From Mesorhizobium sp. (GTDB taxonomy: Bacteria; Pseudomonadota; Alphaproteobacteria; Rhizobiales; Rhizobiaceae), in contig JAUYMV010000674.1 in NCBI GenBank assembly GCA_030698645.1, forward strand, positions 1-10,795: a stretch of 10,795 nt of DNA. The letters run 5' to 3'. Shown in pieces: positions 1,686-3,949 of this stretch. Within the stretch, counting starts at the first letter, position 1. Every line of letters starts with the position of its first letter. A program made the translations under genes and the position numbers. The notes beneath the pieces are model-generated. The model was not told the origin of the DNA. It searched no databases and saw nothing but the letters and a program-made list of their open reading frames with translations.

Positions 1686-2288
1686 ATGAGTGACGTTTTG
1701 AACGATCTCGCCGGCTACCTCCGCGAAAAGCTCGGGCCCCAGGTCGAATCCGCGTCTCTCGCCTATGGTGAGCTGACGCTGCAGGTCGCCGCGGCCGACA
1801 TCGTCGAGGTCATGACCTTCCTCAGGGACGATCCGCGCAGCCGGTTCGTCTCGATCATCGACATCTGCGGCGCCGACTATCCGGCCCGCGCGATGCGTTT
1901 CGACGTCGTCTACCACCTGCTCTCGCCGACGCAGAACACCCGCATCCGCGTCAAGCTGCGCACCGACGAGGACACGCCGGTGCCGTCGATCACCTCCGTC
2001 TTCCCGGGCGCCGACTGGTTCGAGCGCGAGGCCTACGATCTCTACGGCATCCTGTTCACCGGCCACCCGGATCTGCGCCGCCTGCTCACCGACTACGGCT
2101 TCGAAGGCCATCCGCTGCGCAAGGATTTTCCGCTCACCGGCTTCGTCGAGGTCCGCTACGACGACGAGGTCAAGCGCGTCGTCTACGAACCGGTGGAACT
2201 GAAGCAGGAATTCCGCAATTTTGATTTCCTCTCGCCTTGGGAAGGGACGGAATACGTCCTGCCCGGCGACGAGAAGGCGAAACAGTGA
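1686..2288 (+). CDS. nuoC: NADH-quinone oxidoreductase subunit C
   Basis: NuoC (30-kDa subunit) is a structural part of the connecting module and has no cofactor. The product is 200 residues, normal for a separate (not NuoCD-fused) alphaproteobacterial NuoC. The family signature is clear at residues 113-150: EREAYDLYG, then [28 protein letters not shown] sequence with the conserved Arg and Asp residues. The C-terminus ([17 protein letters not shown]) is typical of rhizobial NuoC. It lies 9 bases after nuoB. In most relatives nuoD follows directly, whereas here the four-helix-bundle cassette begins six bases after the stop codon. Confidence 0.97.
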
Positions 2289-2293
2289 ATGGT

Positions 2294-2321
2294 GGCAATC
2301 GGCAGTCGGCAGTAGGCAGTC
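2294..2321 (+). repeat. Left heptanucleotide array (4 units)
   Basis: Four consecutive 7-base units at 2294, 2301, 2308 and 2315, consensus GGCAGTC. Unit 1 has A at its fifth base and unit 3 ends in A; the other two are exact. The array begins 6 bases after the nuoC stop and ends 4 bases before the start codon of the four-helix-bundle gene, so it occupies the place where a ribosome binding site would be expected. Confidence 0.9.
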
Positions 2322-2325
2322 GGAA

Positions 2326-2712
2326 ATGGCGGACGACGACAGCATTCGATCGTATCGTGATTTGAGAGTTTGGAATGAGGCGATGGAACTGGCAGCGGAG
2401 TGTTATCAGGTGACGAAGGCATTTCCGCGCGAGGAAATGTTCGGCATGACGTCGCAGATACGTCGGGCCGGGGCGTCGGTGCCGGCGAACATTGCGGAAG
2501 GCTATGGGCGGGAAAGCTCGGGTAGTTACGTGCATTTCCTGAAGAATGCCCAAGGATCGCTCAAGGAAGTCGAGACTCACGTTCTTCTGGCAGTCAAGGT
2601 GGAGTTGATCTCGTCGGAGACAGCGATGCCCGTGCTCGACCGGGCGGAAACGGTCGGCAAGATGCTGCGGGGACTCATTCGGTCCATTCCGCAGGGGGGA
2701 GCCGCATCATGA
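2326..2712 (+). CDS. Four-helix-bundle protein (S23/TIGR02436 family)
   Basis: The product is 128 residues, mostly helical, and matches the four-helix-bundle family once called 'S23 ribosomal protein' (TIGR02436/PF05635). Family hallmarks are SYRDLRVW (9-16), [17 protein letters not shown] (33-49) running into [14 protein letters not shown] (51-64), and [15 protein letters not shown] (71-85). Known members sit in 23S rRNA intervening sequences, and the fold is shared with Avd of diversity-generating retroelements. The biochemical role is unknown; nucleic-acid binding is suspected for the family. The frame is open further upstream in nuoC, but the start at 2326 fits the family N-terminus. No proper ribosome binding site precedes it. 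GC is lower than in the flanking nuo genes, suggesting separate origin. There is no reason to think it is a complex I subunit. Confidence 0.9.
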
Positions 2713-2715
2713 CCC

Positions 2716-2743
2716 CACTGCCGACTGCCGACTGCCGACTGCC
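2716..2743 (-). repeat. Right heptanucleotide array (4 units, inverted)
   Basis: Four consecutive 7-base units at 2716, 2723, 2730 and 2737. The last three are exactly GACTGCC and the first begins with C instead of G. This is the reverse complement of the left array with three mismatches over 28 bases. It starts 4 bases after the stop of the four-helix-bundle gene (last base 2712), mirroring the 4-base spacing at the left side, and ends 15 bases before nuoD. Confidence 0.9.
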
Positions 2744-2758: not shown

Positions 2759-3949
2759 ATGACCGAGCACTCCGTCCGCAACTTCAACATCAACTTCGGG
2801 CCGCAGCATCCGGCCGCGCACGGCGTGCTGCGTCTGGTGCTGGAGCTTGACGGCGAAGTCGTCGACCGCGTCGATCCGCATATCGGCCTCCTGCACCGCG
2901 GCACCGAGAAGCTGATCGAGCAGAAGACCTATCTGCAGGCGATCCCCTATTTCGATCGGCTCGACTACGTCGCGCCTATGAACCAGGAACATGCCTTCGC
3001 GCTCGCCGTCGAACGCCTGCTCGGCATCGACGTGCCGCGCCGCGGCCAGATCATCCGCGTGCTCTATTGCGAGATCGGCCGCATCCTGTCGCATCTCCTC
3101 AACATCACCACCCAGGCGCTCGACGTCGGCGCGCTGACGCCGCCGCTGTGGGGCTTCGAGGAGCGCGAGAAGCTGATGGTGTTCTACGAGCGGGCTTGCG
3201 GCGCGCGCATGCATGCGGCCTATTTCCGGCCGGGCGGCGTGCACCAGGACCTGCCCGACCGCCTCGTCGAGGACATCGGCAAGTGGATCGACCCGTTCCT
3301 GCAGACGGTGAAGAACCTCGACGACCTTCTGACCGGCAACCGCATCTTCAAGCAGCGCAACGTCGACATCGGCGTCGTCTCGCTGGACGACGCCTGGGCC
3401 TGGGGCTTTTCCGGCGTCATGGTGCGCGGCTCGGGCGCGGCGTGGGATCTGCGCAAGTCGCAGCCCTATGAAGTCTATCCCGAGATGGAATTCGACATTC
3501 CGATCGGCAAGAACGGCGACTGCTACGACCGCTATCTGATCCGCATGGAAGAGATGCGCCAGTCGGCCCGCATCATGCGCCAGTGCGTCGACCTGCTGCT
3601 CGGCAAGGATCGCGTCGGCCCGGTGTCGAACATGGACGGCAAGGTCGTGCCGCCCAAGCGCCAGGCGATGAAGCAGTCGATGGAAGCGCTGATCCATCAT
3701 TTCAAGCTCTACACCGAGGGCTATCGCGTGCCGGCCGGCGAGGTCTATGCCGCCGTCGAGGCGCCGAAGGGCGAGTTCGGCGTCTATCTCGTCTCCGACG
3801 GCACCAACAAGCCCTACCGCTGCAAGCTCCGGGCGCCGGGCTTCGCGCATCTCCAGGCCATGGATTTCATGTGCCGCGGCCACATGCTGGCCGACGTCTC
3901 CGCCATCCTGGGGTCCCTCGACATCGTGTTTGGTGAGGTCGATCGTTAA
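2759..3949 (+). CDS. nuoD: NADH-quinone oxidoreductase subunit D (quinone-site subunit)
   Basis: NuoD (49-kDa subunit) forms the quinone-reduction pocket together with NuoB. The product is 396 residues, the standard rhizobial length. N-terminal motifs [13 protein letters not shown] (13-25) and [11 protein letters not shown] (44-54) are diagnostic. His21 and Tyr70 (in LDYVAPM) correspond to the residues that contact the quinone head group in characterised complexes. The C-terminus ends in the usual [16 protein letters not shown]. The start at 2759 gives the expected [15 protein letters not shown], with AAGGG at 2745-2749 as ribosome binding site. That site lies just outside the inserted repeat array, so nuoD keeps its own initiation signal. 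The stop codon is directly followed by the nuoE start. Confidence 0.97.

What the first reader, a model, noticed from the sequence alone, without database searches (positions are those of the whole stretch)
2294..2743. Four-helix-bundle gene with symmetrical heptanucleotide-array ends inserted in a respiratory operon
A 450-base cassette sits between nuoC and nuoD, genes usually adjacent or even fused. Seen directly: four 7-base repeats at each end in opposite orientation, 4-base spacing from array to gene on both sides, and lower GC than nuoD. Known: the protein belongs to the S23/TIGR02436 family, found in 23S rRNA intervening sequences and related in fold to Avd of diversity-generating retroelements. 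Inference: the repeats and gene form one transmissible unit of a poorly described class whose movement must depend on a factor elsewhere, or on the protein itself. The close fit of repeats to gene suggests the whole unit, not just the ORF, is what inserts.
Basis: partly seen in the sequence, partly recalled or inferred. Interest (0 to 1): 0.8.

Follow-up and report, generated by a model that had tools for sequence, protein, structure and literature searches.

The report
S23 gene with matching repeat arrays
A small gene sits between two respiration genes, bracketed by mirror-image runs of a seven-letter repeat; genes of the same kind in other bacteria are bracketed by their own, different repeat, and protein and repeat seem to match like key and lock, which suggests an undescribed family of small mobile elements.

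Summary
An S23/TIGR02436 gene (2326-2712) lies between nuoC and nuoD, bracketed by four GGCAGTC-type heptads per side in inverted orientation. The plan is general: of 123 S23 loci in the host's family and order, 111 (left) and 116 (right) carry 7- or 8-mer arrays, against 4 of 123 control windows. The unit differs between elements, but the two ends of one element match, and the unit follows the S23 protein, not the insertion site. Residues 60, 65 and 68, all in one loop, are the ones most associated with the variable bases; residue 68 predicts base 6 in 16 of 16 held-out Rhizobiales loci (10 clusters), more weakly elsewhere. The host genome also has ORF-less mini-elements (paired inverted arrays), mostly of its two S23 genes' repeat types. 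Genomes with a given S23 type are enriched for arrays of that type. At nuoC-nuoD, Rhizobium hosts with 91-97% identical flanks have no element, a remnant, or one of two very different elements. Best reading: a RAYT/REPIN-like system whose gene partner is a four-helix-bundle protein, not a known transposase. Binding and mobility are inferred; no movement was seen. Ten literature searches showed no S23-heptad link.

The parts
1686..2288 (+). nuoC, host gene upstream of the element
   Evidence: NF004733 E 2.8e-106
2294..2323 (+). left heptad array: GGCAATC, GGCAGTC, GGCAGTA, GGCAGTC, then GG
   Evidence: 0 of 20000 shuffles
2326..2712 (+). S23 / 23S_rRNA_IVP / TIGR02436 gene, 128 aa, four-helix bundle
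   Evidence: PF05635 E 3.6e-37; TIGR02436; AlphaFold2 pLDDT 89, helices 4-30, 35-59, 65-91, 97-120; fold matches 2GSC and, weakly by E-value, Avd
2503..2529 (+). codons of residues 60-68 (Y60, S65, Y68): loop between helices 2 and 3 and start of helix 3, proposed repeat-reading loop
   Evidence: top three columns associated with repeat class; tables and tree test; held-out test of residue 68
2714..2743 (-). right heptad array, inverted; four units at 2716-2743 (GGCAGTG and GGCAGTC x3 on the - strand)
   Evidence: 0 of 20000 shuffles
2759..3949 (+). nuoD, host gene downstream of the element
   Evidence: NF004739 E 4.9e-191

Best explanation
The 450-base stretch is one genetic element: an S23-family gene whose protein recognises the repeat unit that forms its own two inverted terminal arrays. 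It is the gene-bearing member of a family that also includes short ORF-less elements (paired inverted arrays of the same kind of unit) scattered through the genome. It works like a RAYT/REPIN system, in which one gene near inverted repeats supports a population of hairpin-forming non-autonomous elements. SHOWN: both ends match within an element; the unit goes with the S23 protein and not with the site; genomes with an S23 of one unit are enriched for arrays of that unit; gene and both arrays differ as one block between closely related hosts at one site; the 8-mer S23 lineage occurs at several sites. INFERRED: S23 binds the array (as DNA or RNA) through the loop at residues 60-68, perhaps as a pentamer along a run of about four units; binding leads to copying or insertion at ends of genes inside operons; the strand-joining chemistry comes from host replication, repair or another enzyme, because I know of no catalytic motif in S23. 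In the nuo mRNA the arrays can pair and close the element as a stem-loop, as in 23S rRNA intervening sequences, which may make the insertion harmless.
For: Arrays at 111 (left) and 116 (right) of 123 S23 loci against 4 of 123 controls. Within-element end matching 0.69 versus 0.15 between elements, 0 of 5000 permutations. Repeat similarity follows S23 identity (Spearman 0.44, 0 of 300 permutations) and not site (0.008). Residues: base 6 C with H60 23 of 25 versus 3 of 91; T with R65+F68 31 of 33 versus 1 of 83; G with Y68 49 of 54 versus 5 of 62. Held-out Rhizobiales: Y68 with G 11 of 11, F68 with another base 5 of 5, 5 and 5 clusters at 85% identity. Seven further loci: all Y68 and G. Mini-elements; genome association GTGAATG 11 of 11 vs 11 of 69, GGCAGTC 10 of 11 vs 6 of 69, GCGAATA 11 of 21 vs 11 of 59. 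Block difference and empty or remnant sites. Similar plan on plasmids of Cyanobacteriota, Gemmatimonadota, Bacteroidota and Azospirillum. Arrays pair in the RNA fold: window, 24 of 31 sampled elements. Fold relation to Avd.
Against: No movement, target duplication or clean single-event empty site was seen; the empty spacers differ in sequence from the flanks of filled sites. Phylogenetically independent contrasts for the residues are few (3:1, 4:0, 3:0) and not significant. H60 fails in three held-out loci (L225, L230, L246 have H60 with G). Outside Rhizobiales the residue-68 rule is only a trend (Y68 6 of 10, F68 17 of 21, p 0.04), and H60+F68 fails in L194. Some genomes have arrays without a cognate S23: G006 and G014 have no S23 hit at all, and my guess that the second S23 of G053 and G175 would be of the GTGAATG kind failed. 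In the phylum-wide sample only 14 of 39 loci have clearly matching ends; of 14 plasmid loci L199 is mainly direct, L200 has both orientations, L197 and L204 match weakly by the score. The S23 tree is clustered by site (13 changes, 52 in shuffles), so much inheritance is vertical. All four block-difference pairs involve one strain, R. croatiense.
Confidence: 0.6

Rival explanations
1. S23 is a sequence-specific RNA- or DNA-binding regulator that autoregulates its own transcript, and the arrays elsewhere are its target sites at ends of genes; the arrays grow by slippage and selection and are not mobile.
For: The same recognition evidence. Arrays are strongly structured in RNA. Some mini-elements occupy the same site in related genera, and Rehm et al. 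report 83% of X. [quoted passage not shown]
Against: At a shared site the interiors are unrelated and the unit differs (L037 vs L351). The 8-mer S23 lineage lies at several sites. Gene plus arrays differ or are absent between hosts with 91-97% identical flanks. Rehm et al. found repeat-neighbouring genes spread over functional classes (section 16).
Confidence: 0.23
2. The arrays are simple slippage-prone repeats, or G-quadruplex sites, that have nothing to do with the S23 protein; the S23 gene just happens to lie among them.
For: Arrays expand strongly in some genomes (about 29 units in G034); heptads in Xanthomonas and Nostoc form quadruplexes in vitro (PMC4692102 abstract).
Against: Four units is the commonest count for 7-mers without GGG or CCC: 27 of 52 left, 45 of 74 right, so quadruplex formation cannot be the general reason for it. 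123 loci against controls and the protein-repeat correlation speak against coincidence.
Confidence: 0.04
3. A mobile unit as proposed, but S23 is only a passenger, and an unknown enzyme elsewhere in the genome reads the arrays.
For: I know of no catalytic residues in S23; array-bearing genomes without an S23 hit exist (G006, G014).
Against: A passenger would not be expected to have loop residues that track the repeat base, nor would the unit follow S23 identity across sites.
Confidence: 0.1

Closest known systems
RAYT / REPIN (REP-associated tyrosine transposase and REP doublets)
   Same: A gene linked with inverted repeats and a genome-wide population of inverted doublets with variable spacers that can form hairpins (REPIN features from passages of PMC3116915; single-copy RAYT bracketed by REPs recalled).
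   Different: The protein is a four-helix bundle of the S23/Avd fold, not a Y1 transposase; the repeats are tandem 7/8-mer arrays, not single REP palindromes.
23S rRNA intervening sequence with S23 ORF (Coxiella, Leptospira)
   Same: Same protein family, similar size (428 nt vs 450), terminal inverted repeats forming a 28-bp stem around the ORF (PMC4990558 passages).
   Different: Here the element is between protein genes, its arms are tandem heptad arrays, and ORF-less elements of the same unit exist in the genome; cutting by RNase III is untested here.
GGGAATC heptad repeats of Xanthomonas and GGGGAYT repeats of Nostoc; cyanobacterial STRR heptamers (STRR recalled)
   Same: Tandem heptads, four-unit preference, 70 convergent pairs in X. 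campestris, mostly intergenic (PMC4692102 abstract and sections 10, 16).
   Different: That paper stresses quadruplexes and has no occurrence of S23, four helix or XCC0516. L321, whose S23 is 64% identical to the X. campestris protein XCC0516, is flanked by GGGATTC arrays. The XCC0516 locus itself was not examined.
Avd of diversity-generating retroelements
   Same: Same fold by Foldseek (prob 1.00 to 4DWL and to chains of DGR ribonucleoprotein entries, E 0.03-0.2); Pfam bAvd match below its cut-off (25.8 vs 40); PF05635-Avd homology also stated in PMC10053308 (passage).
   Different: NCBIfam Avd score is far under its cut-off (23 vs 80). A reverse transcriptase or template/variable repeat was not sought.
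TAACTGA heptad repeats of Beggiatoaceae
   Same: Heptad repeats in intergenic regions; [quoted passage not shown]
   Different: Nearly all direct repeats, one inverted case; no occurrence of S23 or four helix.

Membership tests
S23 / 23S_rRNA_IVP family (PF05635, TIGR02436) | profile score above curated cut-off | tested here: met
   PF05635 127.3 bits vs 33.8; TIGR02436 121.2 vs 24
S23 / 23S_rRNA_IVP family (PF05635, TIGR02436) | four-helix bundle like 2GSC | tested here: met
   AlphaFold2 model; Foldseek to 2GSC TM 0.77-0.82 by query length
23S rRNA intervening sequence | location inside a 23S rRNA gene | tested here: not met
   between nuoC and nuoD
23S rRNA intervening sequence | terminal inverted repeats forming a stem around the S23 ORF | tested here: met
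   30-nt arms 90% complementary; arms pair in the predicted RNA fold
23S rRNA intervening sequence | excision from RNA by RNase III | not testable with these tools
   needs RNA work
RAYT/REPIN | tyrosine (Y1) transposase gene | tested here: not met
   the ORF matches only S23- and Avd-type families in Pfam and NCBIfam
RAYT/REPIN | non-autonomous inverted doublets of the gene's own repeat in the genome | tested here: met
   association across genomes
RAYT/REPIN | transposition or excision observed | not testable with these tools
   needs population sequencing
Diversity-generating retroelement | Avd model above cut-off | tested here: not met
   23.3 bits vs cut-off 80
Diversity-generating retroelement | reverse transcriptase and template/variable repeats nearby | not tested
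   ORFs of the window were listed but not searched for an RT
G-quadruplex heptad repeats (Rehm et al.) | G-tract of three or more in each unit | tested here: not met
   GGCAGTC has none

The most novel reading that the evidence does not exclude
S23 proteins are sequence-reading heads of a cross-phylum family of mobile elements without a classical transposase. A short loop (residues 60/65/68) sets which heptad is recognised, and when a genome acquires an S23 of new specificity its repeat population turns over to match. The long-puzzling heptad repeats of cyanobacteria and Xanthomonas would be the hairpin elements of this family, and 23S rRNA intervening sequences its ribosomal branch.
Probability: 0.3. 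Interest if true: 0.95.

Novelty: categorically new. Interest (0 to 1): 0.87.

Why it matters
S23 proteins and heptad repeats of cyanobacteria and Xanthomonas have each been known for years without an agreed function. This links the two with a testable protein-repeat correspondence. If S23 mobilises its arrays, it would be a mobile-element system built on a small four-helix bundle of the Avd fold and not on a recognised transposase; if not, it would still give a function (sequence-specific binding) for a large orphan family (5018 homologues of the window protein at E 1e-5).

Tried and rejected
Other cargo: GxxExxY (TIGR04256) was sought in 121 genomes and found in 0. Rfam: no family at gathering score in the window or in six own-genome loci with arrays. 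Phage records: no S23 match at E 0.001. Quadruplexes as the general reason for the four-unit preference: rejected. Chance: rejected. Independent-pairs test of the residues: too few contrasts to be significant. Guess that the extra S23 genes of G053 and G175 would match their GTGAATG arrays: failed, both are bracketed by 8-mers. A script paired arrays in 18 of 25 array loci; it left 7 unpaired (L034, L336, L337, L339-L342), although one search has hits on both strands at L336 and L337. The left and control windows are 190 bases, the right ones longer (60 bases of the match, the end of the ORF and 170 bases).

Full report
WHAT IS THERE. Between nuoC (1686-2288) and nuoD (2759-3949) lies an S23-family gene (2326-2712, 128 aa). 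Left of it are four heptads of the GGCAGTC type (2294-2323), right of it four of the same unit in inverted orientation (2714-2743). The period-7 score is not reached in 20000 mononucleotide shuffles on either side.

THE SAME PLAN ELSEWHERE IN THIS GENOME. The genome has a second S23 hit (contig C525), downstream of an ATP-grasp-like gene (my reading of the translation), bracketed by inverted arrays of another unit, GCGAATA/GCGAGTA. A search for three GSSARTN units gave 67 hits and 0 for the reversed pattern; two units of GGCAGTC with up to 2 mismatches gave 36 against 10. The 67 hits lie on 19 contigs. Two are the S23 loci; of the other 17, 10 show a plus-strand array followed within about 100 bases by a minus-strand array with no S23 between (one of them, C48): ORF-less mini-elements. 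Seven have arrays on one strand only. Their units are mostly of the two kinds that flank the two S23 genes, with some GGGAGTA, within what the pattern allows; two 3-unit GTGAATG hits also exist. Over 25 array loci from this and other genomes a script paired 18, interiors 17-96 bases, total median 128.

THE NUOC-NUOD SITE IN RELATIVES. Of 30 relatives' junctions read, 8 carry an S23 gene with arrays (window included), 4 carry a gene that looks like a GFA-type zinc protein (motif recalled, not searched) without arrays, and 18 are spacers of -1 to 77 bases. In the host's genus, four of the five junctions read are filled, with GGCAGTC, GGTCGTC and (twice) GTGAATG units, and one is empty. Of 80 named junctions (loci), 24 have S23, 29 are shorter than 60 bases and 27 are other: 20 spacers of 65-78 bases, three GFA-like genes, R. 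johnstonii 3841 and R. hidalgonense with a right array only, R. sullae with a truncated S23, and L263 with a mini-element.

WHOLE-UNIT DIFFERENCE. Flanks of R. ecuadorense (L238) and R. croatiense (L259) are 93.8% identical, yet their S23 proteins are 54% identical and the units differ (AGTAGTG vs AGTAGGC); three more pairs show the same, all with R. croatiense. R. leguminosarum Tri-43 (filled) and R. ruizarguesonis (S23-free spacer) share 94% and 97% of the flanks. So gene and both arrays go together. Within a repeat class, S23 identity and host identity run in parallel, so ordinary inheritance also occurs; the S23 tree needs 13 site changes against 52 in shuffles.

GENERALITY. TIGR02436 is found in 114 of 394 genomes of the host's family and 60 of 398 in a phylum sample. 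For 123 loci (from; three are from other families of the order), a 7-, 8- or 14-periodic array of score 8 or more lies left in 111 and right in 116; the control window has 4 (16 with any period). Sites: nuoC-nuoD 66, an ATP-grasp/alpha-E junction 25, a glutamine-synthetase-like/FAD-oxidoreductase junction 21 (20 of them 8-mer arrays), upstream of mmsB 5, others 6; no host gene at the 118 assigned sites is on the other strand (gene names other than nuo are my reading of translations). Of 35 plasmid records with S23 I fetched 14: 11 cyanobacterial, Azospirillum, Gemmatirosa, Riemerella. Periodic arrays lie left in 13 and right in 14. Inverted matching ends are clear in 10; L199 is mainly direct, L200 has both orientations, L197 and L204 are weak. 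Three are inside CRISPR operons, cas6-S23-cas4 and cmr2-S23-cmr3. In 39 phylum-sample loci, 24 left and 27 right arrays of period 7 or 14 were found against 2 controls, but only 14 have clearly matching ends.

THE REPEAT GOES WITH THE PROTEIN. Left arrays share six-mers with the reverse complement of the right array of the same element at 0.69 on average, of other elements at 0.15; 0 of 5000 permutations reach this. Repeat similarity correlates with S23 identity (Spearman 0.44; 0 of 300 permutations) and not with being at the same site (0.008). Heptads share a circular ARTNG core in 84 of 97, against 17% after shuffling letters, with two variable bases, or three in 8-mers (the rotation was chosen by fit to this core). 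Orientation is fixed: of 110 loci, 102 left arrays contain ARTNG and 2 its complement; 99 right arrays contain the complement and 3 ARTNG.

A LOOP THAT TRACKS THE UNIT. Ranking the S23 columns by association with repeat class (8-mer, or the last two bases of the 7-mer), the top three are residues 65, 60 and 68. In the model they lie in the loop between helices 2 and 3 and at the start of helix 3. Base 6 is C with H60 in 23 of 25 (3 of 91 otherwise), T with R65 and F68 in 31 of 33 (1 of 83), G with Y68 in 49 of 54 (5 of 62). Base 6 changes 18 times on a tree built without these columns, but independent contrasts on supported branches are few (3:1, 4:0, 3:0) and not significant. On Rhizobiales loci below 97% identity to the training set, Y68 goes with G in 11 of 11 and F68 with another base in 5 of 5 (p 0.0002); these form 10 clusters at 85% identity, five and five. 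H60 is less reliable: three of the eleven have H60 with G. In the remaining phylum and plasmid loci with Y or F the trend is weak (6 of 10 and 17 of 21, p 0.04). Seven loci fetched later all have Y68 and G. In L154, whose left array mixes two units, those next to the gene are the ones expected from its H60/F68.

ARRAYS ACROSS GENOMES. In 80 genomes (66 with S23, 14 without), exact three-unit arrays outside the fetched S23 loci go with a resident S23 of the same unit: GTGAATG 11 of 11 versus 11 of 69 other genomes; GGCAGTC 10 of 11 versus 6 of 69; GCGAATA 11 of 21 versus 11 of 59 (reversed-pattern controls 0). Twelve of the 14 S23-less genomes have none of the three. Against the reading, G006 and G014 have arrays without S23, and the extra S23 genes of G053 and G175, which I expected to be of the GTGAATG kind, are not. 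Some mini-elements recur at the same sites in other genera: L036 (GGCAGTC) lies where other genera have full S23 elements with GGCAGTA or 8-mer units, and L037 and L351 share a site with different units and unrelated interiors.

UNIT NUMBER. For 7-mers without GGG or CCC four units is the commonest count (27 of 52 left, 45 of 74 right); with GGG or CCC it is four to five. Rehm et al. (PMC4692102; abstract and sections 10 and 16 read) found four-unit preference for GGGAATC in Xanthomonas and related it to quadruplexes; that cannot hold for GGCAGTC. They also describe 70 convergent pairs in X. campestris. XCC0516 of that species is an S23 protein of known structure (2GSC); L321, 64% identical to it, is flanked by GGGATTC arrays. 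The XCC0516 locus was not available to me.

HOW IT MAY WORK. S23 has the fold of Avd, which sits in a DGR reverse-transcriptase ribonucleoprotein (title of entry 8UB7; which chains are Avd is my inference). 2GSC and 2RLD have five chains per entry, as a pentamer would. I propose that an S23 oligomer reads about four units of its own array, and that this, with host enzymes, copies or moves array-bounded hairpins to ends of genes. In mRNA the two arrays can pair, as in 23S intervening sequences (PMC4990558 passages). Binding, oligomer geometry and movement are inferred.

LITERATURE. Ten searches of an open-access library showed, in listings and in the passages I opened, no paper that links S23 proteins with heptad arrays. 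PMC10053308 (passages) notes PF05635-Avd homology; PMC10910872 (one legend passage) names the domain in a figure on rare CRISPR systems.

Noticed in passing
L049, L054, L059, L069, L271, L276, L285 (nuoC-nuoD junction): A gene that looks like a GFA-type zinc protein (motif recalled) sits between nuoC and nuoD in these relatives, without heptad arrays; the junction seems to accept different inserts.
   Followed up: partly
L194, L199, L202: S23 genes with arrays inside CRISPR operons of cyanobacterial plasmids: cas6-S23-cas4 (two) and cmr2-S23-cmr3.
   Followed up: partly
G034:C6:539690-539891: A GGCAGTC array of about 29 units, one of several long expansions in this genome.
   Followed up: no
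G014: A genome with no S23 hit but many GTGAATG arrays and one GCGAATA array locus; the S23 may be lost or missing from the assembly.
   Followed up: no
G005:C1:4749260-4749857: nuoC matches in two overlapping pieces, of 64% and 91% identity to the window's nuoC.
   Followed up: no
L233, L243: R. johnstonii 3841 and R. hidalgonense keep only a right heptad array at nuoC-nuoD, apparently a remnant of a lost element.
   Followed up: yes
L154: Left array has outer GGCAGTC units and inner GCGAATA units; may be a nested insertion or layered history.
   Followed up: partly
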